A stretch of 44,070 nucleotides of DNA. It comes from a virus. The translations under genes and the position numbers were made by a program. Numbering within the stretch: the first letter of the stretch is position 1; every line of letters starts with the position of its first letter. Where the stretch lies: positions 1 to 44,070 of the IMG/VR virus record IMGVR_UViG_3300032222_000142, one strand, 5' to 3'. Below are positions 5,136-33,996 of this stretch, in pieces. The notes below the pieces were generated by a model. It searched no databases and was not told the origin of the DNA. It worked only from the letters and a program-made list of their open reading frames with translations.

Positions 5136-5741
5136 ATGAAATCACTTTTAATAGAAACAAAATTATTTGAGGGAAAGATTAACGAAGACGAAAACGGAGT
5201 AGTTTTGGTTAAAGGTGTATTACAGAGAGCGGATGCACAAAACCAGAATGGTAGAGTGTACCCAAAAGAAATATTAGAAAGAGAGGTTAAGAAATATCAA
5301 CAACTTATTACAGAGAAAAGAGCATTGGGTGAATTAGACCATCCAGAATCTTCTGTAGTTAGTTTGAAGAATGTATCCCATAACATAAGAGAATGCTATT
5401 GGAAAGGAGATGATGTGGTAGGTGTCGTAGAGATATTACCAACTCCATCTGGTAACATATTAAAAGAATTATTAAAAGCGGGAATCCGTTTAGGTATCTC
5501 AAGTAGAGGTATGGGCTCAGTTCAATCCATTGGAGATAATAAAGTAATGGTGGCTGAAGATTTTGAATTGATTGGGTGGGATTTTGTATCTAACCCATCA
5601 ACTCAGGGTGCATTTATGGAAAACTTAAATGAATCGGTATCTTCTAAGAAACAAATTAACGAAACATACGGAACAGATGTATGTGGAGAGTGGTGTAGAA
5701 CTCAACACTTAATTAGAGAAATTATAGAAGAGTTAGCATAA
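5136..5741 (+). CDS. gp21: Prohead core protease (gp21-like, serine peptidase U9 type)
   Basis: This is the maturation protease that degrades the scaffold and trims capsid proteins inside the prohead. At 201 residues it is close to T4 gp21 (212). Family motifs are clear: His69 in GELDHPESS, the serine pair 122-123 in GISSRGMGS, and Asp149 in WDFVSNPS, consistent with the His/Ser/Asp arrangement of herpesvirus-like assembly proteases. Its likely targets are the products at 6085 and 7197; the capsid protein has a fitting LLSE/A site at residue 61. It belongs to the run starting at 3049 and is followed one base later by the bS21 gene. The start at 5136 has an A-rich leader (GTAAA) and no Shine-Dalgarno. 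Confidence 0.92.
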   Translation: MKSLLIETKLFEGKINEDENGVVLVKGVLQRADAQNQNGRVYPKEILEREVKKYQQLITEKRALGELDHPESSVVSLKNVSHNIRECYWKGDDVVGVVEILPTPSGNILKELLKAGIRLGISSRGMGSVQSIGDNKVMVAEDFELIGWDFVSNPSTQGAFMENLNESVSSKKQINETYGTDVCGEWCRTQHLIREIIEELA

Positions 5742-8923: not shown

Positions 8924-9571
8924 ATGAGGTTACATACAATAAAGGATAAGTACGAAATAGGTAAAATCAAAACCTACGAAGATGTACCAGGATGGATTGG
9001 TTGTGCAGAAGACATCTACGGATTAGTATTCAAAGAATTAAATGATGGGGATTCTATAGTAGAGATTGGAACATTTTTTGGTCAATCTACAATCTTTATG
9101 GCTTCCCTTATAAAAGAAAGCGGGAAGAAAATACACTTCGATACAATAGATTCTCTTTGGCAGATAGATGCGGATGTAAGAAGAGGAGACCATCCAAAAT
9201 CATTTTACGATTACCGATTTTCAGAACAACTTAAGGATATTCCAATTGATGAGTTAATTAAGGCTCACTATCGATTATGCGGGGTGGATGAATATATTAA
9301 CCTTATGATTGGGGATAGCAGATGGTTATGGAAATGGTATGAAAAGGAATCCTTGCAATTTGTTTATATAGATGGAGACCACAATTATGAGATAGTTAAG
9401 TTAGATATGGATAATTGGTGGAGTAGAGTTAAGGTAGGTGGATACTTAGGCGGAGATGATATAGATGCTTATCCATCGGTTCTGAGAGCTATGAATGAAC
9501 TAATTGAGAGAGAAAACATACCAAATCACAAGATTCAGATATTTCCAAACTCTTTTTTAATTAGGAAGTGA
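8924..9571 (+). CDS. Class I SAM-dependent methyltransferase (Methyltransf_24-like)
   Basis: A 215-residue protein with a Rossmann-type methyltransferase fold. Motif I is IVEIGTFFGQST (about 45-56), binding the methionine part of SAM; an acidic post-I Asp lies in HFDTID (71-76); motif IV/V is FVYIDGDHNYE (146-156) followed by VKVGGYLGGDD (about 170-180), typical of Methyltransf_24 enzymes that often act on sugars or small molecules. No DNA-methylase catalytic motif (NPPY, DPPY or PCQ) is seen, so DNA modification is unlikely. It follows a terminator and lacks an exact ATATTTATA copy; a near match, ATATTTAAA, ends 3 bases before the ATG. A link to glycan decoration of fibres, with the glycosyltransferase at 33998, is an inference. 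Confidence 0.8.
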   Translation: MRLHTIKDKYEIGKIKTYEDVPGWIGCAEDIYGLVFKELNDGDSIVEIGTFFGQSTIFMASLIKESGKKIHFDTIDSLWQIDADVRRGDHPKSFYDYRFSEQLKDIPIDELIKAHYRLCGVDEYINLMIGDSRWLWKWYEKESLQFVYIDGDHNYEIVKLDMDNWWSRVKVGGYLGGDDIDAYPSVLRAMNELIERENIPNHKIQIFPNSFLIRK

Positions 9572-9579
9572 TATTTATA
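9571..9579 (+). promoter_or_regulatory. Candidate late promoter motif ATATTTATA before the Dps-like gene
   Basis: Exact motif, overlapping the methyltransferase TGA stop and followed by GATGTA, 25 bases before the ATG at 9604. Confidence 0.55.
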
Positions 9580-9603: not shown

Positions 9604-9975
9604 ATGGAAGAATTGGCTTCGGTATTTTTACACAGCAGAACCCAAGCTCATGTGTTTCATACGAGAGTTAGAGGGACAGGTGCTTTATCATTACACTTAG
9701 CATTGGAAGGATACTACACAGAAATAATACCCCTAATCGATGGACTAGTTGAATCTTATCAGGGTATGTATGGTTTAATAGAGTATAAGGATGTAAAAGG
9801 AGTAGATAATAATGCAGAAAAAGACAATATCATTAATTATTTTACTAAACTTTGCACCTATTTAGAAGCTGCTAGAAAAGATAAAAAGTTACAACATAGT
9901 TGGATGCAAAATGATATAGATAATATAGCTACATTATTATATTCAACCAAATACAAATTAACTAATTTAGGTTAA
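9604..9975 (+). CDS. Dps/ferritin-like small protein with intact ferroxidase pattern
   Basis: The 123-residue, apparently all-helical protein has the residue pattern of the Dps ferroxidase centre with exact spacing: His19, His31, Asp46 and Glu50, that is H-x11-H-x14-D-x3-E, the same gaps as His51/His63/Asp78/Glu82 in E. coli Dps and His31/His43/Asp58/Glu62 in Listeria Dps. The context LHLALEGYYTEIIPLIDGLVE also fits Dps helix B. Dps proteins are about 150-170 residues, so this is a short form. Dps family members oxidise and store iron and protect DNA from Fenton damage. Whether the phage protein forms a cage, oxidises iron or serves in the virion cannot be told from sequence. It has its own candidate promoter between the methyltransferase and the fibre block. 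The fold call is inference from the pattern. Confidence 0.72.
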   Translation: MEELASVFLHSRTQAHVFHTRVRGTGALSLHLALEGYYTEIIPLIDGLVESYQGMYGLIEYKDVKGVDNNAEKDNIINYFTKLCTYLEAARKDKKLQHSWMQNDIDNIATLLYSTKYKLTNLG

Positions 9976-9986
9976 TCGTATTTCTG

Positions 9987-9995
9987 ATATTTATA
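9987..9995 (+). promoter_or_regulatory. Candidate late promoter motif ATATTTATA (unit 10014-16446)
   Basis: Exact motif 19 bases before the ATG at 10014 and 12 bases after the previous stop. It would drive the small protein at 10014 and the giant fibre. Confidence 0.55.
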
Positions 9996-10013: not shown

Positions 10014-10391
10014 ATGGCAGCAGCGAGATATTCATTCATAGTAGAGCAAGGAGCAACCACCAACATCCAACTTAAATGGGAGGATGCTAGTGGTAGTATA
10101 AACCTTTCTGGTTATAGTGGAAGGATGCAAATCCGACCTACTGTAGAATCAAGTACGGTTTATTTAACACTTAGTTCTTCTTTAGATGTAGATGGAACTG
10201 GGTTGAATATGAGTGGCTCTGATGGAGAAACACCGGTTCAAAGTGGTTCAATAGGAATCTATATATCAGCTGCAAAATCTGCACAATTAAATTTTGAAAC
10301 CGCTTATTATGATTTAGAAATGATGAGTGGCAATGAGGTTACGAGATTATTAGAAGGACAAGTGAAATTGTCAAAAAATGTAACCCGATAA
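10014..10391 (+). CDS. Small beta-rich virion-associated protein beside the fibre
   Basis: A 125-residue protein rich in beta-strand residues. The N-terminal FIVEQGATTNIQLKWEDASG and the C-terminal YYDLEMMSGNEVTRLLEGQV resemble small proteins found just upstream of tail-fibre genes in many phages and prophages (pattern: 'EQG-T-x-x-L-x-W-D-x-G ... YDLE ... G-x-V-T-R-L-L-x-G-x-V'). A connector or adaptor between fibre and virion is likely but not demonstrated. It is one base from the following fibre gene, so the two are co-translated. Confidence 0.75.
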   Translation: MAAARYSFIVEQGATTNIQLKWEDASGSINLSGYSGRMQIRPTVESSTVYLTLSSSLDVDGTGLNMSGSDGETPVQSGSIGIYISAAKSAQLNFETAYYDLEMMSGNEVTRLLEGQVKLSKNVTR

Positions 10392-10392
10392 G

Positions 10393-13300
10393 ATGTCTGT
10401 AACATTAGTAAATAACTCACCGCAATTAACAGTAGCAACCGCAGGAACAAGAGGGTTGACAGGAGCTCATGTAGTATCCGCAGCATTCTCTGGTTCTAAT
10501 TTAATCATAACACTTTCCGATGGGACAGTTGTAAACGCGGGAGGAGCTATATTATCATCGAGTGGTAGTAACAATTGGGTAGGTCAGCAAGCAATAAATG
10601 GTAATGTAATCATAAGTGGTTCGTTCATCGTAAGTGGTTCGAATACATTTATCAATATTGGACCAGCTATTTTGAGTGGCTCTGTTAATGCGGGTACTAC
10701 CTCTATAACAGGAAGTTTAATTGTTAGTGGTGGAACTATAAATGTAATTGGTACAAATTTAGTTAGTGCATCTCAACAATTAAGTTTATTCAATAATACA
10801 GGATTAACGAGTTATACTCAATCTATGTATAACTATTCCAACACTCAATCATTGAATTTGAGTAGCTCTATTGGTTCATTGAGTGGAAGTGTTGGGGTAA
10901 CAACTGCAAATTTAAGTTCATCAATTGGTTCAAATAGAACTGCATTAAGTGCATCTGTATCAATCGTAACATCTGCTTCAAACGCAAGAATAACTAACTT
11001 AGAGGTTGCAAGTGGTAGTATAAGAAGTGATTTTAATTCATACACATCTTCTACTAATACATCCGTAACTGCTTTACAAACTTCAGCATCAACTGCGGTA
11101 AGCGTTAATGATGTACAAACTTCCAAAATAAATTCATTAGAAATACAAAGTGGCAGTTTAGTAATATCAGCATCTTCGCTTAGAACATCTGCTTCTAATA
11201 TGGTTACTAGAACAAGTGCGATATTACAGGCTACAGAAAGTTTGCATATATTTAGCTCATCTGTTAATCAATTTACATCATCTACTATACAGGATATAAA
11301 TTCAATACATTCTACTACTGCATCAATTAATACATTTACTTCATCAGTTGTAGTCAGAAGTGCGTTTAATTCTTATACACAATCTGTGGGTAACACATTG
11401 GCTTTAACAGGTTCAATAAGTTCTTTAAACACATTTACTGCATCGGCATTTGCATCATTCTCCGCTTTACAAGTTACTGCAAGTTCTTTAACTGCATATA
11501 CAACATCTTCAGATAGTGATATAAATAATTTAGAAGTTAGTGCAAGTAGTTTAGTTGTTAGTGCAAGTTCTTTGATAGTATCAGCATCTACTTCTTTATC
11601 TACAAATAACTCACAGACAGCTTCTATAAATTCATTAAACTCATTTAGTAGTAGTGTTAATGCTAAGTTTGATGTAATAGGTGGTAAAACAGGCTCGTAT
11701 GCAACTACATCATCTGTTACTTTACTAAGTGCATCGGTTGACAGTAGATTAAATTCAATAGAAGGTGATTCTGGAAGTTGGGGAGCTTCTACTAACATAA
11801 GTTCTTTAAACACATTTACCGCTTCAGCATTTGCATCATTCTCCGCTTTACAAGTTACTGCAAGTTCTTTAACTGCATATACAACATCTTCAGATAGTGA
11901 TATAAATAATTTAGAAGTTAGTGCAAGTAGTTTGATACTTAGTGCAAGTGCATTAAGAACATCAGCATCTACAGCTTTATCTACTAATAATGCTCAGACA
12001 GCTTCCATAAATTCATTAAGTTCATTTAGTGCAAGTGTAAGTGCTGTGACAAATTCATTACAAAATACAACAGCATCACTAAATTCATTTACATCTAGCA
12101 CAGATAGCAAATTTATTCAAATCGCTATTTCGACAGGAAGTTTATTAGTATCAGCGAGTTCATTGGTAATTAGTGCAAGCGCTTTAACGACATCAGCTTC
12201 TACTGCGTTTAGTACAAATAATTCTCAGGCAAATAGATTAACAATACTAGAATCATATTCATCTTCACTTAGTTCTGCAATAGATGTATCAAATGGAAAT
12301 TTGACGGTATTGGGTAACTTAACTGTTCAGGGAGATACTACCACTCTTAATACTACTAATTTAATAGTAGAGGATAAATTAATTGAATTAGCAAAAGGAA
12401 CAACGACATCAGTTGATGCAAATGGAGCTGGTATTTATATTAGCGGTGCGGATGCAAGTATAACTTGGAATCACGGACAATCTAGAGTAAATGTAAACAA
12501 AGCATTAAATGTATCTGGGAATATAACATTGACAGGAACAGTTGATGGAGTGGATGTATCTACATTATCGACATCTTTTACTGCTGTAAGTTCCTCTTAT
12601 TTATTAGAAAGTGCATCGGTAAGTGCTTCAATCAAAACATTGAATGCATATACTTCATCTAATAATACAAACATAAGTGCGATGCACACTTCAACTGCAT
12701 CGTTAAATACATTTACATCATCAACTTATAATACATTTAGTACATCCGTTGATATTAGATTAGATACAATAGAAGCTTCTTTAGGTGTAGGTGGAAGTGG
12801 AATAGGCATGGATGTTGATAATTTAATTTTAAGTTCATCGGCATCAATTGTTTTAAATAATCAACAACAAGCTAGTTTAAATGGATTACTTAATAGTACT
12901 CCATCCGCATCTGTATTTAGTGTAGTTAGATTATCACAAACTGCTTCTAATTTAACTGGTCAGGTAGCTAATCAAGAAACACGATTAATATCACATACAT
13001 CTAGTATAGCCATATTATTTCAAAGTGCATCTTCGTTATCAGCATCGGTACTTAGTATATTTAACACAAATAATCAACAGAATGCTAAGTTATCCTTAAT
13101 GGAAAACTTTACGGGTTCAACTTTTACAAATTATACTCAATCAGTATCTCAGTCGATTTTACAATTGAGTGCTTCAATTGGAGGAGGTAATGTAATTGGT
13201 TTGGTAAATGGATTAACCTCTTCGGTATCGAATTTATCAATAACTCAATCTGGTATATCGGCTAGTAATTCCGCATTATCAGCTTCATATAATGCTGCAT

Positions 13301-16300
13301 CGGGTGCTTTTAAAATTCAAATTTCTCAATTACAAGACCAAAAAGACAGTTATTTAGATTTTGTAAGTGGAAGCAGAAGTGGTTCATTTCCTAGTTTCCC
13401 TCCGTTCTCAGCATCAGTTGAACAAAGATTTAATTCTATATTAAGTAATATTAATCAAGTATCAAATAGTGCATGGCTAGATTCAGACCAGGTAACATAT
13501 AGTTCATCGGTGGCATTAACTACAAGTGCAAGTCAAGGTAGTTTGTTTAATTTAAGTTCATCTATTTGGAATACCGCTACCGGATTATCAAAAAGTATTA
13601 ACACAAGTATAAGTGAATCATTTAGAAGTGCATCAAACTCTATAAATTCAATTGTAGTAGGAACCGGATTTATACCTAGACTTGAATTTAATAGTGTAAC
13701 TTCTTCATTTAGCGCATCAATTTCTGCATCGAATTCATTTAGTGCATCTGTAACAAGAAGTGTTAATAATACCGTTTTATCAGCTAGTGCTTTACAAGTA
13801 ACTGCATCAAATTTAAGTGCATATACATCTTCATTACAATTGGCATTGCAACCTAATGGTAACAATGTAAATATTAGTGGTAATTTATATGTAAGTGGAA
13901 ATATAGTAGCACAAACATATATTGTAAGTTCATCTGAAATCTATATAACACAGTCAAACTACAATTATAGCGGAAGTAATTTATTTGGAAATGATTATGG
14001 GGATGAGCATGGATTTAGTGGTTCAATAAAATTATTTGGACCATTGGTAATGAGAGCTGGTTTACTTGGACAAGGTAATCAACCGACTTTTATAGATGTA
14101 GCAGGCTCGATAACTTCATCTGGTACACTAAATTCAAACGGAGTATCATCTAGTTACATTAGTGCATCTACATTTGTTAGCGCATCTAATTTTTATGGTG
14201 AGTATAATGGTGTATCAACGCAAGTACACTTATCACAATCTATTGGATATAATAGTTTAACTGCTTCGATTAGTGGAGCTATAAATGCTGCATCGAACTC
14301 ATTATCAGCGAGTATTACTACTACAACTAATACGTTGAGTGGAAGTGTAGATGTGCTATTCACTTCAGCGAGTTCATTGAGAATATCTGCATCCGCAAAT
14401 CGTAATAATATTATATTCCTATATACTTCAGCGAGTTCATTGGAAACTTCTGCTAGTTTATTGAGTGCAATTACATCAGCGAGTATAGCAAGTGGTAGTG
14501 CTAATCAACAAAGTGGTAGTGCTAATAAACAAAGTGGTAGTATATTATTTACATCAGCAAGTTCATTACAAACATCAGCGAGTGTGATGATTACAAGTGC
14601 TTCTAATCTGAGTACATACACACATTCATTGCAACAAGCTATTTCTGTAACAGGAAGTAATTTAAGAGTATTAGGAAATGCAAATATCCAAAACGATTTA
14701 ATAGTAAGTGGAAATATCGTAGCACAAAACTACATCATAAGTTCATCTGTATTAATTATTACAACTTCATTCAGTAGTGGTTCTACTGTATTCGGTGATA
14801 CTATAAATGATACACATCAGTTTACTGGTTCTCTTAATATTACTGGAAGTATTTCATCTTCTGCTACAATTACTGCGGCAACAATTAGTGGTACTATTGC
14901 AGCAGCAAACGGAGTAGTTTCCGGTTCATCTCAGTTTGTAGAATATGGTGGAGCGTTAACTTCATCCAATACGTTTGTTGGTACGCAAACCGTAAACGGA
15001 CAATTAAAAGTAAGTGGTTCGACTACGTTGACAGGAAGTGTAGGAGTAGATTTAAGAAGTGGCAGTCAGTTTTATGTAAGAAATGGTGTAACTAGAATAG
15101 ATTCAGTTTTATTCGTAACAGATAATGATTATGTTAATTCGGCATACGTTGGGGGTGATATTAAAGTAAATGATTACTTAGCAGGAGGATATACTGCTCA
15201 TTATGATGGTGGTGTTCAAATCACCGGTTCATTAAGAGTAAATGCTGGACAAAACGGAAGTGGTTCATATTTCACAGGAAGTGTTTGGATAACAGGAAAC
15301 GAAGCAGTTAGTGGAAACTTACAAGTTGTACAAAATACTTCAGTAAGTGGTAATTTTATCGGAACTACAATTTCGGCATCTTCAGCTGTAACCGCCTCTT
15401 CTTTAAGAGTTGAGGGGTTAACTAGAATTAATGGAGAGGTTGATATTGATACTACACAAATAACAATTGGTGCTGGTGGAAACGCGGTAGCGGATGAAAC
15501 TAGATTAAACACATTAAATTTAAGAGTAGATAGTGATACATTCTTTAATTCAAACGTAACCGCTATATCAGGTTCTACTAGAGTTAAGAGTTTAGCGATA
15601 AACGATTTAAGTATGAGTAGAATTCCTTATGTGGATTCAACTGATACTTTAGTTGATAGTGCAAACTTTACATACAATGGAGTAACATTCAAAATAGGTG
15701 GAGGGGCAGTTGAAATAGATGATGCAACGGGAAATATTAGAACATCGGGTTCATTAAAAGTAGATGGTATAACTACACTTCATTCAACATTAAATGTTAG
15801 TGGAGCAGTTGGTATAACAGGTTCATTGATAGTAACCGGTTCTACAATTATATCCTCATCATTAAGAGTAAATAATACTGCATCGTTCGCACACTTAAAC
15901 GTAACGGGTTCTACGAATGTGACCGGTTCGGTTTCAATAGGTGGAGCTTTAGCAGTAAGTGGAAGTACTAGAGTTAGTGGAAACTTTGCGGTAAGTGGTA
16001 CATTAGATATAAGTGGTAGTGCAACTTTCGATTCATATGTTAATATAACGGGTGGATTAGCGGTAACAGGAGGATTCTCTGTAAAAGGTGAGCCTGTGTT
16101 AATCGGTGATTCAATGACTGATTCCATCATAATATCTGGAGGTTTAGAGATTACGGGTTCTCTCACAAGAAATACTACAAATCTTAGAGCAACGGGTTCA
16201 AACAATCCTGCAGATGCAATATATAGATTAACTGAGGCTCAAGCATGGAGTTCATCTTTTACAACTAATAACACATCAAGTGGTGCTTGGATAAGAACAC

Positions 16301-16446
16301 CTGATGAATATTTAGAATACTTCGTTGGACAAGGTTCTAACAAAAGAAGATATATTACTCCTGTTTGGATAGATGAAACTCTTTACGCAGACGATTACTT
16401 CGATATATCAGTTGTAAGTGGCGCAGATTCAGATTATGTTTTCTAA
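10393..16446 (+). CDS. Giant Ser/Thr-rich tail fibre or virion surface protein
   Basis: A 2017-residue protein made mostly of low-complexity repeats. Residues about 100-630 and 710-1150 alternate short SASSL, TSASN and SLNTFTSS units that look like coiled or trimeric stalk; later parts (about 1150-1950) use beta-type units such as VSGNLxVSGxT and TGSLxVTGST, typical of trimeric beta-helical fibre shafts. Around residues 636-705 is one copy of a module (IVEDKLIEL ... GAGIYISG ... ITWNH) shared with the fibres at 22308 and 25369. A 137-base segment occurs twice, 381 bases apart. The C-terminus ends in an ordinary globular-looking domain (WIDETLYADDYFDI), with no S74 chaperone. No enzyme motif is seen. 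Ser/Thr content makes it a possible target of the glycosyltransferase at 33998 (inference). Confidence 0.85.
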   Translation: MSVTLVNNSPQLTVATAGTRGLTGAHVVSAAFSGSNLIITLSDGTVVNAGGAILSSSGSNNWVGQQAINGNVIISGSFIVSGSNTFINIGPAILSGSVNAGTTSITGSLIVSGGTINVIGTNLVSASQQLSLFNNTGLTSYTQSMYNYSNTQSLNLSSSIGSLSGSVGVTTANLSSSIGSNRTALSASVSIVTSASNARITNLEVASGSIRSDFNSYTSSTNTSVTALQTSASTAVSVNDVQTSKINSLEIQSGSLVISASSLRTSASNMVTRTSAILQATESLHIFSSSVNQFTSSTIQDINSIHSTTASINTFTSSVVVRSAFNSYTQSVGNTLALTGSISSLNTFTASAFASFSALQVTASSLTAYTTSSDSDINNLEVSASSLVVSASSLIVSASTSLSTNNSQTASINSLNSFSSSVNAKFDVIGGKTGSYATTSSVTLLSASVDSRLNSIEGDSGSWGASTNISSLNTFTASAFASFSALQVTASSLTAYTTSSDSDINNLEVSASSLILSASALRTSASTALSTNNAQTASINSLSSFSASVSAVTNSLQNTTASLNSFTSSTDSKFIQIAISTGSLLVSASSLVISASALTTSASTAFSTNNSQANRLTILESYSSSLSSAIDVSNGNLTVLGNLTVQGDTTTLNTTNLIVEDKLIELAKGTTTSVDANGAGIYISGADASITWNHGQSRVNVNKALNVSGNITLTGTVDGVDVSTLSTSFTAVSSSYLLESASVSASIKTLNAYTSSNNTNISAMHTSTASLNTFTSSTYNTFSTSVDIRLDTIEASLGVGGSGIGMDVDNLILSSSASIVLNNQQQASLNGLLNSTPSASVFSVVRLSQTASNLTGQVANQETRLISHTSSIAILFQSASSLSASVLSIFNTNNQQNAKLSLMENFTGSTFTNYTQSVSQSILQLSASIGGGNVIGLVNGLTSSVSNLSITQSGISASNSALSASYNAASGAFKIQISQLQDQKDSYLDFVSGSRSGSFPSFPPFSASVEQRFNSILSNINQVSNSAWLDSDQVTYSSSVALTTSASQGSLFNLSSSIWNTATGLSKSINTSISESFRSASNSINSIVVGTGFIPRLEFNSVTSSFSASISASNSFSASVTRSVNNTVLSASALQVTASNLSAYTSSLQLALQPNGNNVNISGNLYVSGNIVAQTYIVSSSEIYITQSNYNYSGSNLFGNDYGDEHGFSGSIKLFGPLVMRAGLLGQGNQPTFIDVAGSITSSGTLNSNGVSSSYISASTFVSASNFYGEYNGVSTQVHLSQSIGYNSLTASISGAINAASNSLSASITTTTNTLSGSVDVLFTSASSLRISASANRNNIIFLYTSASSLETSASLLSAITSASIASGSANQQSGSANKQSGSILFTSASSLQTSASVMITSASNLSTYTHSLQQAISVTGSNLRVLGNANIQNDLIVSGNIVAQNYIISSSVLIITTSFSSGSTVFGDTINDTHQFTGSLNITGSISSSATITAATISGTIAAANGVVSGSSQFVEYGGALTSSNTFVGTQTVNGQLKVSGSTTLTGSVGVDLRSGSQFYVRNGVTRIDSVLFVTDNDYVNSAYVGGDIKVNDYLAGGYTAHYDGGVQITGSLRVNAGQNGSGSYFTGSVWITGNEAVSGNLQVVQNTSVSGNFIGTTISASSAVTASSLRVEGLTRINGEVDIDTTQITIGAGGNAVADETRLNTLNLRVDSDTFFNSNVTAISGSTRVKSLAINDLSMSRIPYVDSTDTLVDSANFTYNGVTFKIGGGAVEIDDATGNIRTSGSLKVDGITTLHSTLNVSGAVGITGSLIVTGSTIISSSLRVNNTASFAHLNVTGSTNVTGSVSIGGALAVSGSTRVSGNFAVSGTLDISGSATFDSYVNITGGLAVTGGFSVKGEPVLIGDSMTDSIIISGGLEITGSLTRNTTNLRATGSNNPADAIYRLTEAQAWSSSFTTNNTSSGAWIRTPDEYLEYFVGQGSNKRRYITPVWIDETLYADDYFDISVVSGADSDYVF
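11416..11933 (+). repeat. Two copies of a 137-base segment in the giant fibre gene
   Basis: 11416-11552 and 11797-11933 are nearly identical (a few changes around the Thr-Ala-Ser codons), 381 bases or 127 codons apart, in the same frame. They encode the same stretch beginning ISSLNTFTASAFASF. The near identity suggests recent duplication or gene conversion. Confidence 0.88.
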
Positions 16447-25368: not shown

Positions 25369-28300
25369 ATGAAAGTAATAGGTAAACAAAGTTCGGGAGT
25401 AAGTTTAGTAGCAAGTGGTACACTTGGTATATCAGTATTAGGAAATAACGAAATACTGATGACTAATGATACTATATTCTTTTCATCATCTTTGGTGGTA
25501 AGTGAATCATTATTCGCATCAGGAAATACTCAATTAGGTATTAACACCGCTAGTACACATGAGATAACTGGTAGTTTTTTATTAACAGGTTCTTCTAAAC
25601 AAATCGGAACATCAGTAATAACGGGTAGTATAACTGTAACAAGGGATTCAACTTTCATTCAAGATGTATATGTAAGTGGTACTTTAAAAGGGCCTTTCTC
25701 TTCTTCAATCGAACAGAGAGTTAATGCTTTAGAAGAACAAAGATTTATATTAGGAGGAGATGTAAGTGCGAATGCGGTATTAACTGGTTCAGCACAATCC
25801 ACATATACGGCTTCATTAAACATAACATTAAATCAAATATCAGCTTCTCAGATTATTTTTCCTGAAGAATCTAAAAAAGTTTATGTAGCGGAATATGGTA
25901 GTGATATTTTAATAACTCCACATAGAGGTAAATCACCGGCAACTGCATTCAAAACAATTAAAGCAGCTGTACAAAGTATATACGGAAACTATCAAATATC
26001 AGCTTCACAAGTTAGTGGCTCTGGTCAAAGTGGTTCTGCAACTGAAGCATCTATTATTTCACAATCATACGCAACTGTTGCTGAAATTTTGGCAGGTGGG
26101 TTAGGTGTAACTCCAGCCGTTGTAAAAAATGGTGCAACTGATTTAGTATTGGTTGGTAACACATCACAAAGTTTTTACGATGGATATGGTGGAAATGCAG
26201 AATCATCATCGGTGAGTTCTTCATTTGCAACCGTAATAAACATATTAGGAAATGGATTAGGTGCAGTTCCTGCATTAGTAGAAAATGGTAGAACACCTGT
26301 AAAACTTTCTACAAATGTTCAAATAACTGGAACAGGTGGTACTAATGCAGTATCATCATCAATCAGTTCATCATTTGCGGTTATTACATCTATTATCAAC
26401 GGAGGAGTAGGAGTTGCACCATCGGTTGTTAATAATGCAGAAGCGATTACAACAGATGCGAATAAATTAAATGCTAGAACATTAGTATTAAGAAATAAAG
26501 GGTTTATACAGGATGAAACAATTGAGTACTTAAGTGCGGTTTATCCTTATTTTGATTATAATAGATTAAGATGTAAGAGAGATGTTGGTTTACTTATTGA
26601 TGCGGTATTAGATGATTTAGTATTCGGAGGAAATCAAAGAACGGTTGAAGCAGGGGTATCATATTATAATGGTAACTTTGGTGATGCATCTAATGTACCT
26701 GGAGCACAAAAAGAACAAACTATTGCGGCAATTCTTTATGCAAGTAGAATGGCACAAATCATTTCAATTAACGGAACGATTTCAGCACCATCTGTAGCTA
26801 AAGGAAATGCAAAGGCTGCATTATTAGGAAACAAAAAACTTATTCAAGAAGAGATAATCTACTTCATTGAGCATGTTTATATAAAAGGTAAAGACCAAAC
26901 AGGTACACCATTTACTTACAATAGAGATAAGTGTAGAAGAGATATTGGATTTATTATAGATGGAGTTGCTACAGATTTAATATTCGGTGGTAATCAACAA
27001 TCTATCATAAGTGGTAAAGCATATTATGATGGTGTTTATGGAAATGGTGAAGTAGTAGTAAATGACCAATTAGTTGAGACTGTAACATCGATTTCATATG
27101 GAGCTAGAATAGCTAAAGATGCTGTTGTAGGTAATGTAGTTCCTAAACTTTCTACAAATAAAAAGAATGCAGTTTCCTTATTGGAAATGAATAAGAAATT
27201 CTTAGGTGAACAAACCGTAGGATTAATATCTTCATCGTTCCCTAACTTAATTTATAGTTCATCTAAGTGTAGTAGAGACGTTGGTTTGATTACTGATTGT
27301 GTTATCGTAGATTTAATCTATGGTGGTAACGAACAGGCAATAGAAGCCGGTACACAATATTACACAAACGCGTATGGTGATGCATCAGAAGTTCCTGCAT
27401 CTCAATTAACAGAGACAGTAGCAGGTATTTTATATGCGGGTGCTATTGCACAAAAAGTTGCAAGAGATATATTTGTAACAAATACATATGCACCTTGGTT
27501 CTCTCCGTTTACAAACTATAACACAACTGTATATGTAGAAACTGGGACATATGTAGAAGATAACCCAATTGTACTTCCTCCTGGAGTTGCAATTAAAGGA
27601 GATACGTTAAGACAATCATTATTATATGCGAAGAATCCTAAATTGGATTACTTCCACGTACATAGTTCAGATTATATAGATTCAGTAAGATTCTTAGATT
27701 TACAGAGACCATCATTTGCGGTGGCTTTTCCATCTGCTATTATTGATTATACAATACAATCTGGTAGAATTACAAATCCAGTTATATTATATTCTCCTAT
27801 TGGATATACATCATCTGTAAACATTATAGTAGAAGAGCCTGATTCTCCACCAGAAAGTGGTTCAATTAGAGCTGAATTTACAACTGTTATTTCGAATGGT
27901 AAAATCGTTGGATTAACTTATGTAAACTCAGGTAGTGGATATGTTTCTACAGAAAGACCGCATATCTCAGTTCCTGCTCCAGAAAATCAAAGACCATTTA
28001 TTCAAGCATCTCCATATGTTTGGAACTCATCAGCAATCACAGGACCATTTAATTTTAATGGGGAGAAGATTTCTGAATTAGTTCCACTTCCATATGATTT
28101 AGAAGATTTAGGCGTTGATAATACTGGTGCCGGTGGTGGTATGAGAGTGGATGGTAATTGTTGTAGAGAAGCTGCACCTCGTTCTCCACTTCGTTCAATG
28201 GTTGCTGCGGCATTTACGCAGGTTAACCAAGGAGGACCTGGACACCACGTTTGTAATACGGGATACGCTCAGTTCGTATCTATGTTCACCACATATTGTA

Positions 28301-31300
28301 CTTATGGATTTAAGACATCAGGTGGTGGTTTTGCAAACATTTCTAACTCCGTAATTGACTTCGGTTTACAAGGAGTTATATCAAAAAGAAACTTTAAAGA
28401 CACATATACAAATGCATTAGTATTATCAGCTGGTACTTCAACCGTTGCTGGTTTTAATGTAATAGTTCCAGGTAGTGGATATACCGTAGCGCCGGTTGTA
28501 ACGATTAGCGGTGGAGGTGGTAGTGGCGCAAGTGGTTCTGCATTAGTTACAGCAGGGCAAGTTGTTGCATTGAATTTAGAATCAAGTGGTAGTGGATATA
28601 CATCAGTACCATCTGTTTCTATTGCATTACCTGATACTCCTGGTGGAGTAAGAGCAGAAGCAACTGCGGTATTAAGTGGTTTGGCTAATATATTTGTTAG
28701 AGTTACTGGTTCATTCCAGGGACAACAAAGAAATATTGACTTCTCTTCTTTAATGAAGTTGAATGGTTCTAATTACTTAGTAACTGATATTAATACAACC
28801 GTAGAACCAGATGAGTTCTTCGTTGAAACTTTCCCTTCTGTATTCTTCGTAAACGCCGGAGATAATGCTGATTTTTATCAATTATCAAACATATCAACGG
28901 GAGGTCTTGTATTAGAATATGTAGGAGCAGGTATCACTTACAATGCAATTCCTGAATATGGTGGTATTCCAGATTCGGCACAAGAAGTTGTGATGATTGA
29001 ACCTGGAAAAGTATTTGCGGTAACAATTGATAACAGAGGTAACTTAAAAGTTGGTAGATTCTTTAGAGTAGACCAATTGACAGGTGCGGTAACAATTGAT
29101 GCGAATCAGTTCTCATTATCAGGTTTATCTTCAATCGGACCGTTCAGAAGAAATGGTGTTCCTGTCGGTGTTGTAATTAATGAAGCATCTGATAACGAAA
29201 CATTATTAAACTCTCAGGGTTTACCTGGTAGAGATACTGTTCCATCACAACAAGCAGTTAAAACTTATGTTGATGCTAGAACTATTGCGGCAACCGGTAC
29301 TGATAATCAAGTATTGGCTAAGAGTGGTAGTGCTTTATACGGAACAGAATTTAGAAATACAATTGATACAATTGCAACGAACACATTAAGTGGTTCTAAA
29401 ATTGTATCTCGTTCATTAGGAAGAGATTTAATCGTAACACATTCAATAACTGCATTAGAAGTATCAACATCATTGGTAAGAAATGGTTTAACCGGTGGTA
29501 ATGGTGCTCCAATTGAAGTAGTATTCGGTGTATTTGCATCACAATCTACCGATGGAGCTCAATTTACTGCATTCTCTCAGAGTGTTAGTGAATCAGTTAG
29601 ATTCTTATTAGCTACATCTGCAACAACCGGTTCAAATACATTTAAAGGTAATCAGATTGTAAGTGGTAATTTGACTGTTAGTGGTAACGTTGATATTAAA
29701 TTAGATACTAGAATAAGTGGAAACTTATTTATCTTAAATTCTACAAACTTAGGGCAGACTGTTGAGGTAAGTGGAAACTTATCTGTAAGTGGTTCAACTA
29801 TTTTAAGTGGAGGTTTAGATGTATTCAAATATGCAAATATACAAGCACCTTTCACTGCGAGTGGATTAAGATACCCTAATAGTGATGCACAAGGTGTAGG
29901 TAAAATTTTAAGAAGTGATGGAGCAGGTGGAATCTTCTTTGGTTTCACAGATAGAACTTCTATTGGAATTGTAAATATAGGAAATGGTGGACCGATTGCA
30001 AAAGGTACTCCATTATATATAAAAGGATTTGATGTTGGAACTGGATTAACAATAGTTGGACCGGCTTCTTCATCTAGATTAGATAAAATGCCAGCTGTAG
30101 GTTTATCAGCAGATAACTTATTAGAAAGTGGTTCAGGTTCATTAACTGCATTGGGTATCTTAACAAACTATGATACAACTGCATTAACATCTGGACAACA
30201 ACTATATGTTGGACCTAACGGAGGTTTAACAACTCAATTACCTACGGGCTCATTCTATGTACAAAACATCGCTGTGGTTGGTAGAATCAATATCAACGAT
30301 GGTGAATTATTAGTAGAGCATCCTGGAACTTATTTCCAATTACCTAACCTTCCAAAAGATTGGATATGGTATGGTGGAGATGGTGGTGCAGCGATTTCTC
30401 AATCATTGACAGGAGCTATCGCTTCATATGAATTAGCTAGAACCGTAGTTGGTGCAACTGACCAATCAAATGGATGGTATGAAGGAGCTTTAGTAGTAAG
30501 TGGAGGTATAGGTGTTGCGAAAAACGCTCAAATATCAGGTAACTTAACAATCTATGGTAACTTTGATGTAAAGGGTAGTACAACGATTACAGCAATTACT
30601 GCATCTAACTTAGACATTGCGGAAAATACAATTGCCGTAAGAGAGTTTTCTCCTGTAGTTAGATTTGGTGGATTGATTGTATGGGATTCTGGTTCTGTGG
30701 TAGGTGGAACTCCTCCTAATAACGTATATGCATCCGCATCATTATTCTATGATGGTGTAGATAATAACTGGGTAATTGCACAAAATGACGGACGTTCTTC
30801 ATCTTTAATGATAGGAGGACCTGTTAATGGTGGAACATATGGTAATGAAGAAGGATTACCAATGGGAACTATTCCTGTAATTCAATATACTGGTAATAAC
30901 TTAACATCTTCTACGATGACCGATAACGGAATTGTAGTAAGAATGACAAATGATTTAGTAGTAACCGGTTCTATAGGTGGTAGATTGACAGGTTCTGTTC
31001 AAGGAACTTCTCTTTCGATATTTAATTCATTAAGTGCAACCGGTTCATTTAGTGGTAATGGTTATTTAACAGGTTCATTCACAGGTTCATTTACTGGAGC
31101 TGCTGACTTGGCATTTGAAATTACCGGAGGAAATCCAGGAGGATTTGATTATTTCACATATAGTGGTAAGGCAAATACAACTGTAACAATTGCAACTCAA
31201 TCTTTACACTTTGAAGAAGGTGTTAAGAAAAAAATAAATTACGAACAAGTAGTAAGTTCTTCTATACAAGTTAGAGAATACGGATTTGAATATTCTGGTT

Positions 31301-33996
31301 CGGTTAACGCATTTACGGCTTCTACTAATTTGGCATTAAGTGGATTAAACTCATACTCTGCTTCATTAAAGCAAGCGATTAACACAAACGGAAACGATTT
31401 AATAGTACATGGTACGTTAAGAGTAACCGGTTCTAAGGTATTGTTAGAAGTTGGTGATGTTAAGATAGTAGATAAATTCATCGAAATCGCAAGTGGTTCA
31501 TTGAACTCAGCGGCGGCAGATGGTGCAGGTTTCTACATTAGTGGTGCCGATGCATATGTAACTTGGTCGCACGCTTCTCAAAGTTTAAATTTCTCTGATA
31601 CACTTTACTCTGATAACAATATTGAAGTAAGAGGAACTGTTGATGGAACTTTAATCAGAGAATTTGCACCTTCACATAATAATTTCTCTTCATCGATAAA
31701 CGCATATACGGCATCATTAAGAACTGCGGTATCTGAAAGTAATGGCGATTTAATTGTATTCAATAACTTACAAGTTAGAGGTACATTAGGTGAATTAAGA
31801 GTTGATAGATTACAAGTTAAGGATAAGCAAATTGAAATAAATAGTGGTTCTACAACTTCTGCTCAATCGGATAAAGCAGGTTTATTCATAAGTGGTGCTA
31901 ATGTTAATTTCTATTGGGACCATCCTGAACAATATATGTACTTAGACAAAGCGTTTACCGTAAATGGTGATTTCAACGCAAGTACAATTAATGGTATAAA
32001 CTTAACGACATTTAGAAATCAAGTTAACCAGGCAACTGGTGCATTGGAAGTTTATTCTTCTTCATTGAAAAATGCTATAACCGTTGCAGGAACAGGAGTT
32101 TCATCTGTAACAACTATACAAGGTGATTTGAATGTATTGGGTACAACAACTCAACTTCAAATTTCAGATTTAAAAATTGAAGACCGTTTAATTGAAATCG
32201 CTAGTGGTTCAACTACATCGGTTGCTGCAAACGGAGCAGGTTTATTCATAAGTGGTGCTAACGTATTCTTCTCATGGTCGAATGCTGAAACTAATATGAG
32301 ATTAGGTAGTGGATTGTTTGTAAATGGCGCAGTTACCTCATCAACAATATTAGTAGCACAAACTGCATCATTAAATCATATATCAGCGAGTGGAAACATT
32401 AGTGGTGGAGCATTATTTGTAGAGGGTGCAACTTCAATAAGAGGTGCGGTATCTGCAAGTAATACAATTAGTGCATCTGCATTATTTGTACAAAATGCTA
32501 CAAACATAAGTGGAGCATTAGAAGTCGTTGGAAACATTAGTGGTAAAGAATACATCTCTGCAAGTAAAGGTATCACAGGTAGTGGTATATGGTCAGCAGG
32601 TGAAATTAGAGCATTATCAAATGTTCAATTCGACCAAACTGCATTAATTATTGGTGCTACAACGGTAAGAAGTACAATTTCTGCTAGTAACTCAATTTCG
32701 GGTGCAGGTATCCAATCAAACGGAAACTTTAGAGCAACCGGTAATTCAATATTAGACGGATTAGCTACATTTAACAATAGTATTTCTGCAAGTGGTGTAA
32801 TAACTGCTAGTGGATTAAGAATAGAAGGTGAAGGTTCATATGGTTCGTCATCATTCTTTGGACCAATCACCGGTTCTACCGCATGGTTCTCTAATAACTT
32901 AAGAGTAACAGGTTCAATAACTGCATCTCTTAATATGAGTGCAAGTGGATTCGTAAGTGCATCGGCTTCTAATTTTAGAGGTGAAGTAACTGCGGGAGAA
33001 TATAAAGGAAATTTACAATATTATGTAACTGCGGGAAGTGGTATTAGTGGTTCAGTATTTAAGAACCAAACAAATACTACAATCGCTATCGATACGCAAT
33101 CAGTTCACTTCCAATCAGGTTCTCAGCAAGCAGTTGTATCTTATGTTAAAGGAGACGTTACTATTGCAAGTGATGGTACTGCAACAATCGCAGCGAATTC
33201 AGTTGCATTAGGAACTGATACAACTGGAGATTATGTTGCGAGTATTAACCCTGGCTCTGGTTTAACCGGTGGTGCGACAAGTGGTGAAGGGGTGGCTCAT
33301 ACTTTAGCGGTAGGGCAGGGAGATGGTATGACAGTTTCAGCGGATGCTGTTGCATTAAATACCGGTTCTACACACTTCACAACGGGAGCAAGAACAACTG
33401 TTGCTAACTGGGTAAGTGGCGAGGTATCAATTAACCCATCGACAGGTGTGGCTTCATTGGTTATCCCAACATTATCTAGAGCAAGTAACATATTAGGAAC
33501 TGCTAATCAGGTTATTGTAAGTGGTGTAACTGCAACGGGAGCATTTACTGCATCATTATCTTTACCACAAGATATTGCTACTACATCAAACGTAAGATTT
33601 GGTTCTTTAGGAATTGGTGTTAACGCAAGTGGAACGAGTGGTAGAATAGATGCGGCAAATGACATCGTAGCTTACTCTTCATCGGATAGAAGATTTAAAG
33701 AGAACATTAAAAATATACCAAACGCATTGGCTAAGGTATTAAGAATAGGTGGATACGAATTCGATTGGATTTCAAACGTTGAATTACATGGACACGAAGG
33801 ACATGATATTGGAGTTATCGCACAAGAAATTGAGGAGATACTTCCAGAATTAGTTCAGACGAGAGAAAGTGGATATAAAGCGGTTAAGTATGATAAATTA
33901 GTTGCACTTCTTATCGAAGGTATGAAAGAGCAACAAATACAAATCGATAACTTAAAATCAGAAGTAGAAAACTTAAAAAGAGCAAGAGGGTTATAA
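25369..33996 (+). CDS. Giant tail fibre with C-terminal S74 intramolecular chaperone
   Basis: A 2875-residue fibre, the largest gene here. Residues 1-200 are beta-type shaft. Three units of a C-x-R-D-x-G-x-x-x-D-x-x-x-D-L-x-x-GGN motif follow (near residues 401, 521 and 633), then a probable beta-helix (about 717-790, YVETGTYVEDNPIVLPPGVA) and a Cys-containing stretch (GGGMRVDGNCCREAAPRS). GSGYT-x-x-P units occur near residues 905 and 1040-1085. Three copies of the module shared with other fibres lie at about 31435-31610, 31789-31974 and 32144-32335. The C-terminus is an S74 peptidase/chaperone: Ser2772-Asp2773 begin SDRRFKENI, with the later conserved HDIGVIAQEIEEILPE and VKYDKLVALLIEGMKEQQ, and a terminal coiled coil. 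By analogy with endosialidase the chaperone trimerises the fibre and is then cut off at that Ser, leaving about 2772 residues. This is probably a long receptor-binding fibre. Confidence 0.88.
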   Translation: MKVIGKQSSGVSLVASGTLGISVLGNNEILMTNDTIFFSSSLVVSESLFASGNTQLGINTASTHEITGSFLLTGSSKQIGTSVITGSITVTRDSTFIQDVYVSGTLKGPFSSSIEQRVNALEEQRFILGGDVSANAVLTGSAQSTYTASLNITLNQISASQIIFPEESKKVYVAEYGSDILITPHRGKSPATAFKTIKAAVQSIYGNYQISASQVSGSGQSGSATEASIISQSYATVAEILAGGLGVTPAVVKNGATDLVLVGNTSQSFYDGYGGNAESSSVSSSFATVINILGNGLGAVPALVENGRTPVKLSTNVQITGTGGTNAVSSSISSSFAVITSIINGGVGVAPSVVNNAEAITTDANKLNARTLVLRNKGFIQDETIEYLSAVYPYFDYNRLRCKRDVGLLIDAVLDDLVFGGNQRTVEAGVSYYNGNFGDASNVPGAQKEQTIAAILYASRMAQIISINGTISAPSVAKGNAKAALLGNKKLIQEEIIYFIEHVYIKGKDQTGTPFTYNRDKCRRDIGFIIDGVATDLIFGGNQQSIISGKAYYDGVYGNGEVVVNDQLVETVTSISYGARIAKDAVVGNVVPKLSTNKKNAVSLLEMNKKFLGEQTVGLISSSFPNLIYSSSKCSRDVGLITDCVIVDLIYGGNEQAIEAGTQYYTNAYGDASEVPASQLTETVAGILYAGAIAQKVARDIFVTNTYAPWFSPFTNYNTTVYVETGTYVEDNPIVLPPGVAIKGDTLRQSLLYAKNPKLDYFHVHSSDYIDSVRFLDLQRPSFAVAFPSAIIDYTIQSGRITNPVILYSPIGYTSSVNIIVEEPDSPPESGSIRAEFTTVISNGKIVGLTYVNSGSGYVSTERPHISVPAPENQRPFIQASPYVWNSSAITGPFNFNGEKISELVPLPYDLEDLGVDNTGAGGGMRVDGNCCREAAPRSPLRSMVAAAFTQVNQGGPGHHVCNTGYAQFVSMFTTYCTYGFKTSGGGFANISNSVIDFGLQGVISKRNFKDTYTNALVLSAGTSTVAGFNVIVPGSGYTVAPVVTISGGGGSGASGSALVTAGQVVALNLESSGSGYTSVPSVSIALPDTPGGVRAEATAVLSGLANIFVRVTGSFQGQQRNIDFSSLMKLNGSNYLVTDINTTVEPDEFFVETFPSVFFVNAGDNADFYQLSNISTGGLVLEYVGAGITYNAIPEYGGIPDSAQEVVMIEPGKVFAVTIDNRGNLKVGRFFRVDQLTGAVTIDANQFSLSGLSSIGPFRRNGVPVGVVINEASDNETLLNSQGLPGRDTVPSQQAVKTYVDARTIAATGTDNQVLAKSGSALYGTEFRNTIDTIATNTLSGSKIVSRSLGRDLIVTHSITALEVSTSLVRNGLTGGNGAPIEVVFGVFASQSTDGAQFTAFSQSVSESVRFLLATSATTGSNTFKGNQIVSGNLTVSGNVDIKLDTRISGNLFILNSTNLGQTVEVSGNLSVSGSTILSGGLDVFKYANIQAPFTASGLRYPNSDAQGVGKILRSDGAGGIFFGFTDRTSIGIVNIGNGGPIAKGTPLYIKGFDVGTGLTIVGPASSSRLDKMPAVGLSADNLLESGSGSLTALGILTNYDTTALTSGQQLYVGPNGGLTTQLPTGSFYVQNIAVVGRININDGELLVEHPGTYFQLPNLPKDWIWYGGDGGAAISQSLTGAIASYELARTVVGATDQSNGWYEGALVVSGGIGVAKNAQISGNLTIYGNFDVKGSTTITAITASNLDIAENTIAVREFSPVVRFGGLIVWDSGSVVGGTPPNNVYASASLFYDGVDNNWVIAQNDGRSSSLMIGGPVNGGTYGNEEGLPMGTIPVIQYTGNNLTSSTMTDNGIVVRMTNDLVVTGSIGGRLTGSVQGTSLSIFNSLSATGSFSGNGYLTGSFTGSFTGAADLAFEITGGNPGGFDYFTYSGKANTTVTIATQSLHFEEGVKKKINYEQVVSSSIQVREYGFEYSGSVNAFTASTNLALSGLNSYSASLKQAINTNGNDLIVHGTLRVTGSKVLLEVGDVKIVDKFIEIASGSLNSAAADGAGFYISGADAYVTWSHASQSLNFSDTLYSDNNIEVRGTVDGTLIREFAPSHNNFSSSINAYTASLRTAVSESNGDLIVFNNLQVRGTLGELRVDRLQVKDKQIEINSGSTTSAQSDKAGLFISGANVNFYWDHPEQYMYLDKAFTVNGDFNASTINGINLTTFRNQVNQATGALEVYSSSLKNAITVAGTGVSSVTTIQGDLNVLGTTTQLQISDLKIEDRLIEIASGSTTSVAANGAGLFISGANVFFSWSNAETNMRLGSGLFVNGAVTSSTILVAQTASLNHISASGNISGGALFVEGATSIRGAVSASNTISASALFVQNATNISGALEVVGNISGKEYISASKGITGSGIWSAGEIRALSNVQFDQTALIIGATTVRSTISASNSISGAGIQSNGNFRATGNSILDGLATFNNSISASGVITASGLRIEGEGSYGSSSFFGPITGSTAWFSNNLRVTGSITASLNMSASGFVSASASNFRGEVTAGEYKGNLQYYVTAGSGISGSVFKNQTNTTIAIDTQSVHFQSGSQQAVVSYVKGDVTIASDGTATIAANSVALGTDTTGDYVASINPGSGLTGGATSGEGVAHTLAVGQGDGMTVSADAVALNTGSTHFTTGARTTVANWVSGEVSINPSTGVASLVIPTLSRASNILGTANQVIVSGVTATGAFTASLSLPQDIATTSNVRFGSLGIGVNASGTSGRIDAANDIVAYSSSDRRFKENIKNIPNALAKVLRIGGYEFDWISNVELHGHEGHDIGVIAQEIEEILPELVQTRESGYKAVKYDKLVALLIEGMKEQQIQIDNLKSEVENLKRARGL

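What the first reader, a model, noticed from the sequence alone, without database searches (positions are those of the whole stretch)
9604..9975. Short phage protein with the complete Dps ferroxidase residue set
Seen: His19, His31, Asp46 and Glu50 in a 123-residue helical protein, with gaps of 12, 15 and 4. Known: E. coli Dps (51/63/78/82) and Listeria Dps (31/43/58/62) have exactly these gaps and bind iron at the dimer interface. A four-residue match at exact spacing with the right helix context is unlikely by chance. A late-expressed phage Dps-like protein could protect packaged or replicating DNA from iron-driven damage, supply or remove iron during virion assembly, or be a structural component. 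It has its own promoter motif.
Basis: partly seen in the sequence, partly recalled or inferred. Interest (0 to 1): 0.78.

Follow-up and report, generated by a model that had tools for sequence, protein, structure and literature searches.

The report
Phage mini-Dps, probably carried in virions
A T4-like phage gene, sitting among its head genes, encodes a shortened version of the bacterial iron-detoxifying, DNA-protecting protein Dps with its iron-binding residues intact, and published virion analyses of distant relatives suggest that this widespread family is carried in phage particles.

Summary
In detail: ORF 9604-9975 encodes 123 residues with His19, His31, Asp46 and Glu50 at Dps spacing. It is the only such motif among 14,189 residues of window proteins. 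The Dps reading holds too. AlphaFold2 gives a confident four-helix bundle (pLDDT 97), and the 50 PDB matches shown are Dps-type or ferritin-family chains. The four residues are present in 167 of 168 unique relatives (the other is cut off).

The protein belongs to Pfam DUF5856 / PHROG 858, a named but uncharacterised family in over a thousand phage records, including T4-group rI.-1.

New here: family members matched gene by gene were detected in virion proteomes of three phages from two families (LIMEstone1 ORF78, Sajous1 gp217, ValerieMcCarty03 gp108), and the gene recurs among head or packaging genes in unrelated lineages. I judge it a minimal, probably virion-associated Dps that oxidises iron near phage DNA. 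Fold and site are well supported; activity, cage assembly and virion location for this phage are inferred. A phage ferritin was already proposed for Sajous1.

The parts
9604..9975 (+). mini-Dps gene, 123 aa (DUF5856 / PHROG 858)
   Evidence: ORF; Pfam PF19174 E=2e-14; PHROG 858 E=3e-15; AlphaFold2 pLDDT 97.4; Foldseek Dps matches, TM up to 0.80
9658..9660 (+). His19 codon (Dps ferroxidase His, helix A)
   Evidence: 168/168 unique relatives; aligns with NAP His25
9694..9696 (+). His31 codon (Dps ferroxidase His, start of helix B)
   Evidence: 168/168; aligns with NAP His37
9739..9741 (+). Asp46 codon (Dps ferroxidase Asp, helix B)
   Evidence: 167/168, one gap; aligns with NAP Asp52
9751..9753 (+). 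Glu50 codon (Dps ferroxidase Glu, helix B)
   Evidence: 167/168, one gap; aligns with NAP Glu56
9649..9651 (+). His16 codon, extra invariant His three residues before His19
   Evidence: 168/168 in the phage family; Arg or Gln in 12 cellular Dps matches
9572..9579 (+). TATTTATA promoter-like element 32 nt upstream of the gene
   Evidence: 12 intergenic copies in the window vs 0.77 expected, also before tail sheath and head-tail adaptor genes; kept upstream of the gene in close relatives L001-L003, L023, L026, L027
7197..8831 (+). context: major head protein (T4 gp23-like)
   Evidence: PHROG 138 E=2e-72
8924..9571 (+). context: methyltransferase-like gene between the head protein and mini-Dps
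   Evidence: PHROG 2675 E=6e-13
10014..10391 (+). context: next gene downstream, PHROG 1084 (unknown), same promoter-like element at 9988
5136..5741 (+). context: head maturation protease (gp21-like)
   Evidence: PHROG 207 E=4e-52

Best explanation
The gene encodes a minimal Dps-type ferritin-like protein. Shown by computation: a four-helix bundle in which H19 and H31 (helix A end, helix B start) and D46 and E50 (helix B) sit where Dps has its ferroxidase ligands, all conserved in the family. Inferred from Dps: two subunits pair so that the two His of one and the Asp/Glu of the other form a di-iron site that oxidises Fe2+, preferably with H2O2, and keeps iron from making hydroxyl radicals. Inferred from context and from relatives: the protein is made with head and tail genes and becomes part of, or is packaged in, the virion, so that it limits iron-driven damage to the phage DNA during packaging, storage or entry. 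It probably does not bind DNA through a basic tail as E. coli Dps does.
For: Fold and homology: searches (pLDDT 97.4, pTM 0.90; the 50 PDB matches shown are Dps/ferritin-family chains, prob 1.00 for the best ones, TMq 0.80 to E. coli Dps), (profile search of the PDB, NAP best at E=0.0005; 10 of 65 family members match Pfam Ferritin, best 1e-4; profile-profile with 9 bacterial Dps, P=8e-4, ligand columns in register). Ligand conservation. A short-loop member folds as the same bundle with its two His at the same helix ends and matches Dps and bacterioferritins. Virion association of relatives: LIMEstone1 ORF78, 13.15 kDa, 3 peptides, 28% coverage (PMC3296691); Sajous1 gp217, 10 spectra, called 'Ferritin' by Phyre2 (PMC10892097); ValerieMcCarty03/04 gp108/gp100, 26/27 spectra, above the authors' cut-off for virion proteins (PMC13119998). 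The LIMEstone1, Sajous1 and ValerieMcCarty03 genes are DUF5856/PHROG 858 with all four ligands. Context: a head or packaging gene within two genes in 50 of 68 unique window-clade loci and 53 of 55 portal-clade loci; next to HNH/TerS/TerL genes in a third clade; shared promoter-like motif.
Against: No Foldseek E-value is below 0.001 and sequence identity to Dps in the rows shown is 9-24%. The Pfam Ferritin model does not match this protein. The BC helix of Dps is absent and helix C is short, so a 12-subunit cage is uncertain. The position of the fifth Dps ligand (E35 here) varies in the family. Virion detections are low-count and come from relatives 25-29% identical; contaminants were also seen in those preparations. 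In T4-group, RB49 and P19250A relatives the gene lies beside lysis genes rather than head genes.
Confidence: 0.6

Rival explanations
1. An intracellular mini-Dps: it protects the infected cell and replicating phage DNA from iron and peroxide, and its presence in virion preparations is contamination. This is the role proposed for phage Dps in gut and Lactobacillus phages.
For: Published proposals for other phage Dps proteins (PMC8008677; PMC6669764). A host dps gene is strongly induced during phage infection (PMC7354516). In several lineages the gene is beside nuclease, chaperonin or lysis genes. Virion counts are low.
Against: Detected in virions by independent studies of three phages from two phage families; repeated placement in head and packaging gene clusters.
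Confidence: 0.25
2. An iron donor: the protein loads iron into metal-containing tail tips or spikes, or presents iron to host uptake receptors (the Ferrojan Horse idea, proposed for Sajous1).
For: The authors of PMC10892097 proposed it for the operon gp214-217.
Against: The same paper found no loss of infection on tonB or feoB mutants. In the window and most relatives here the gene is with head, not tail, genes.
Confidence: 0.08
3. A structural protein that kept the Dps fold and uses the His/Asp/Glu site only as a metal staple that holds the dimer together, with no ferroxidase activity.
For: Loss of the BC helix and a short helix C; no conserved fifth ligand; the extra invariant His16 could change the metal bound.
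Against: Strict conservation of all four ferroxidase ligands is what is expected of a working site.
Confidence: 0.12
4. The motif is a chance match in an unrelated helical protein.
For: Weak pairwise sequence similarity (E=0.016 at best).
Against: Chance per protein is about 2e-5 to 5e-4; fold, Foldseek ranking and conservation all agree.
Confidence: 0.02

Closest known systems
Pfam DUF5856 (PF19174) / PHROG 858 'starvation-inducible transcriptional regulator' (T4-group rI.-1, CBA120 orf108, RB49 rI.-1)
   Same: Direct sequence membership; all four ferroxidase residues, H16, D106 and the C-terminal Y-x-L conserved.
   Different: The window member has the longer, Dps-like A-B loop (gap 12); many members have gap 9. 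The family name implies a regulator, for which I found no evidence.
Bacterial Dps / miniferritins (E. coli Dps, H. pylori NAP, Listeria Dps)
   Same: Four-helix bundle; H-12-H-15-D-4-E ligand set; ungapped alignment over helices A-B.
   Different: 123 aa, against about 142-180 aa in the Dps chains matched; no BC helix, short helix C, no lysine-rich tail; extra invariant His16; oligomer unknown.
Full-length phage Dps (Gratiaviridae, Lactobacillus plantarum phages; perhaps PHROG 3636 'DNA binding protein')
   Same: Phage-borne Dps-type proteins; 44 of 65 family members match PHROG 3636 at E up to 1, best 9e-7.
   Different: Those are described as host-like Dps; the one whose location is given lies near replication genes, not head genes.
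Sajous1 gp217 'Ferritin' (PMC10892097)
   Same: Same family, found in CsCl-purified virions.
   Different: The authors read it as part of a tail iron system; the passages I read do not link it to the Dps ligand set, DUF5856 or other phages' virions.

Membership tests
DUF5856 / PHROG 858 | Profile match above the curated cut-off | tested here: met
   PF19174 54.8 bits vs cut-off 34.6; PHROG 858 E=3e-15
Dps (ferritin-like superfamily) | Four-helix bundle | tested here: met
   Helices 2-21, 27-56, 73-90, 99-121, pLDDT 97.4
Dps (ferritin-like superfamily) | H-H-D-E ferroxidase ligands on helices A and B | tested here: met
   Present and in register with NAP; conserved 167/168
Dps (ferritin-like superfamily) | Nearest solved folds are Dps | tested here: met
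   The 50 PDB rows shown are Dps/ferritin-family, best TMq 0.80; no E-value below 0.001
Dps (ferritin-like superfamily) | Match to Pfam Ferritin PF00210 | tested here: inconclusive
   No match for the window protein; 10 of 65 relatives match, best 1.4e-4
Canonical Dps | Short BC helix between helices B and C | tested here: not met
   Residues 57-72 contain no helix in the model
Canonical E. coli-type Dps | Lysine-rich N-terminal DNA-binding tail | tested here: not met
   N-terminus MEELASVFLHSRTQA, helix starts at residue 2, net charge -2
Dps (ferritin-like superfamily) | Ligands meet across a two-fold dimer interface | not testable with these tools
   No multimer prediction, no coordinates
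Dps (ferritin-like superfamily) | Dodecameric cage | not testable with these tools
   Needs SEC-MALS or cryo-EM
Dps (ferritin-like superfamily) | Iron binding and ferroxidase activity | not testable with these tools
   Needs a bench assay

The most novel reading that the evidence does not exclude
Tailed phages of several families, the T4 group included, carry a cut-down Dps as a virion protein: a metalloenzyme co-packaged with or attached to the head that disarms iron next to the genome, in a family now labelled only DUF5856 or 'transcriptional regulator'.
Probability: 0.4. Interest if true: 0.78.

Novelty: new variant of a known kind. Interest (0 to 1): 0.55.

Why it matters
Iron chemistry in phage particles has been discussed with little molecular handle. 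This family offers one in T4-group phages, where rI.-1 can be deleted and virions purified easily. It would also replace a misleading family name (starvation-inducible transcriptional regulator) in over a thousand phage records with a testable function.

Tried and rejected
Chance match: rejected. Anti-phage defence protein: no PADLOC match. Transcriptional regulator, as PHROG 858 is named: no evidence found; the name probably comes from Dps ('DNA protection during starvation'). Ordinary sigma-70 promoter upstream: scan found no more than shuffles. T4-type late promoter TATAAATA on the sense strand: the enriched word reads TATTTATA on the sense strand instead. Profile search with the narrow alignment A1 gave spurious hemagglutinin matches at E=0.006, which vanished with the broader alignment A4. 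A ferritin control for the profile-profile comparison failed because my script extracted no sequences. Literature searches for DUF5856 and for Dps among auxiliary metabolic genes found nothing. Bacterial genomes: only one locus, a 5.2-kb contig of a Crocinitomicaceae bin, possibly phage.

Full report
Observation. The window is a whole 44,070-base virus record. It carries the structural module of a T4-like phage: portal, head protease, major head protein, head-tail adaptor and tail sheath. Its head protein is 49-54% identical to those of an uncultured phage, a Microcystis phage and Flavobacterium phages. ORF 9604-9975 and its four residues are as described. The pattern is unique among 14,189 residues of window proteins.

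Family. The protein is DUF5856 in Pfam and PHROG 858. Records of T4, T6 and RB14 carry it; RB14 rI.-1 was checked against both profile libraries. PHROG calls the family 'starvation-inducible transcriptional regulator', so a Dps link was already implied by name. I found no paper naming DUF5856.

Conservation. In 168 unique sequences, H16, H19 and H31 are invariant, and D46 and E50 are present in 167, the remaining row being a gap. Caveat: the relatives were found partly through conserved stretches, so some bias towards the family's core is built in. The H19-H31 distance is 12 in 72 sequences and 9 in 95. H16 is not a Dps ligand known to me; in 12 cellular Dps matches that position was Arg or Gln, while H. 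pylori NAP has a His there.

Structure. AlphaFold2 on a 65-sequence alignment gives pLDDT 97.4, with helices 2-21, 27-56, 73-90 and 99-121. Foldseek lists Dps-type or ferritin-family chains in all 50 PDB rows shown, best TMq 0.80; E-values are 0.02-0.16, so the strength lies in consistency and probability, not in any single E-value. A portal-clade member with the short loop gives the same bundle at pLDDT 93.7 with the His at the same helix ends and matches Dps and bacterioferritins. Differences from Dps: no BC helix, short helix C, no basic tail.

Virion evidence from the literature, matched gene by gene here. LIMEstone1 ORF078 is recorded as 'confirmed structural protein', 13.15 kDa with 3 peptides (PMC3296691); [quoted passage not shown] Sajous1 gp217 gave 10 spectra and a Phyre2 'Ferritin' assignment at 96.7 confidence (PMC10892097). 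ValerieMcCarty03 gp108 gave 26 spectra and its counterpart in ValerieMcCarty04 gave 27 (PMC13119998), where the authors chose a cut-off of 15 because known virion proteins ended there. The LIMEstone1, Sajous1 and ValerieMcCarty03 proteins are DUF5856 with every ligand. These are low counts from relatives 25-29% identical to the window protein; they do not show that the window phage packages its copy.

Context. In portal-clade loci the gene directly follows the portal gene (73 loci before dereplication; 53 of 55 after). In the window clade it occupies several different positions, many of them within the head module: after gp23, between protease and scaffold-like genes, or before the head-tail adaptor. 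A third clade (L009 and relatives) sits by HNH, small and large terminase genes. Exceptions are T4-group, RB49 and P19250A, near lysis genes. Recurrent placement in different spots of one module suggests late co-expression; it does not prove virion location. Phage genomes have many head genes, and I computed no null for it.

Promoter. TATTTATA occurs 12 times in 1,448 intergenic bases against 0.77 expected, mostly 25-53 nt upstream of start codons, including this gene, the tail sheath and the head-tail adaptor.

Mechanism and confidence. Dps-type fold and homology about 0.95; metal binding at the conserved site about 0.85; ferroxidase activity about 0.65; virion component in this phage about 0.5; protection of phage DNA as the selected role about 0.45. 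Novelty: the family is known and a phage ferritin in virions has been suggested for Sajous1. What is added is the complete Dps site, the minimal architecture, the unification with rI.-1 and three virion proteomes, and the head-gene association.

Noticed in passing
window 958, 2996, 9572, 9988, 16456, 17290, 22270, 36503, 36819, 39216, 39806, 40840 (+): TATTTATA, mostly within GATATTTATA or AATATTTATA, stands before many structural genes of this phage: a likely phage promoter word that reads as the reverse complement of the T4 late element.
   Followed up: partly
BFVD hits A0A6J7XDU5, A0A6J7WPK9, A0A6J7WIS1, A0A6J5LAB8, A0A8S5MNG7: Long phage proteins annotated as prohead protease, ParB/sulfiredoxin or NUDIX hydrolase contain a stretch with a Dps-like fold, suggesting fusions of a mini-Dps to head-maturation or other proteins.
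   Followed up: no
BFVD hits A0A481ZC29 (Pithovirus LCPAC404), A0A7D3V608 (Fadolivirus): Giant-virus proteins of 115 and 129 aa match the mini-Dps model at TM about 0.75.
   Followed up: no
window 8924-9571: Methyltransferase-like gene between the major head protein and mini-Dps, kept next to the mini-Dps gene in 12 loci; target unknown.
   Followed up: no
window 10393-16446 and 25369-33996: Two very large ORFs of 2017 and 2875 aa; the first is made of Ser/Thr/Asn-rich repeats resembling a fibre or adhesin.
   Followed up: no
L220 2137-5012; L219 1695-5354: In Ackermannviridae the mini-Dps gene is next to other virion proteins of unknown function (LIMEstone1 ORF80-82; Sajous1 gp214 with 196 spectra, gp215, gp216).
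   Followed up: partly
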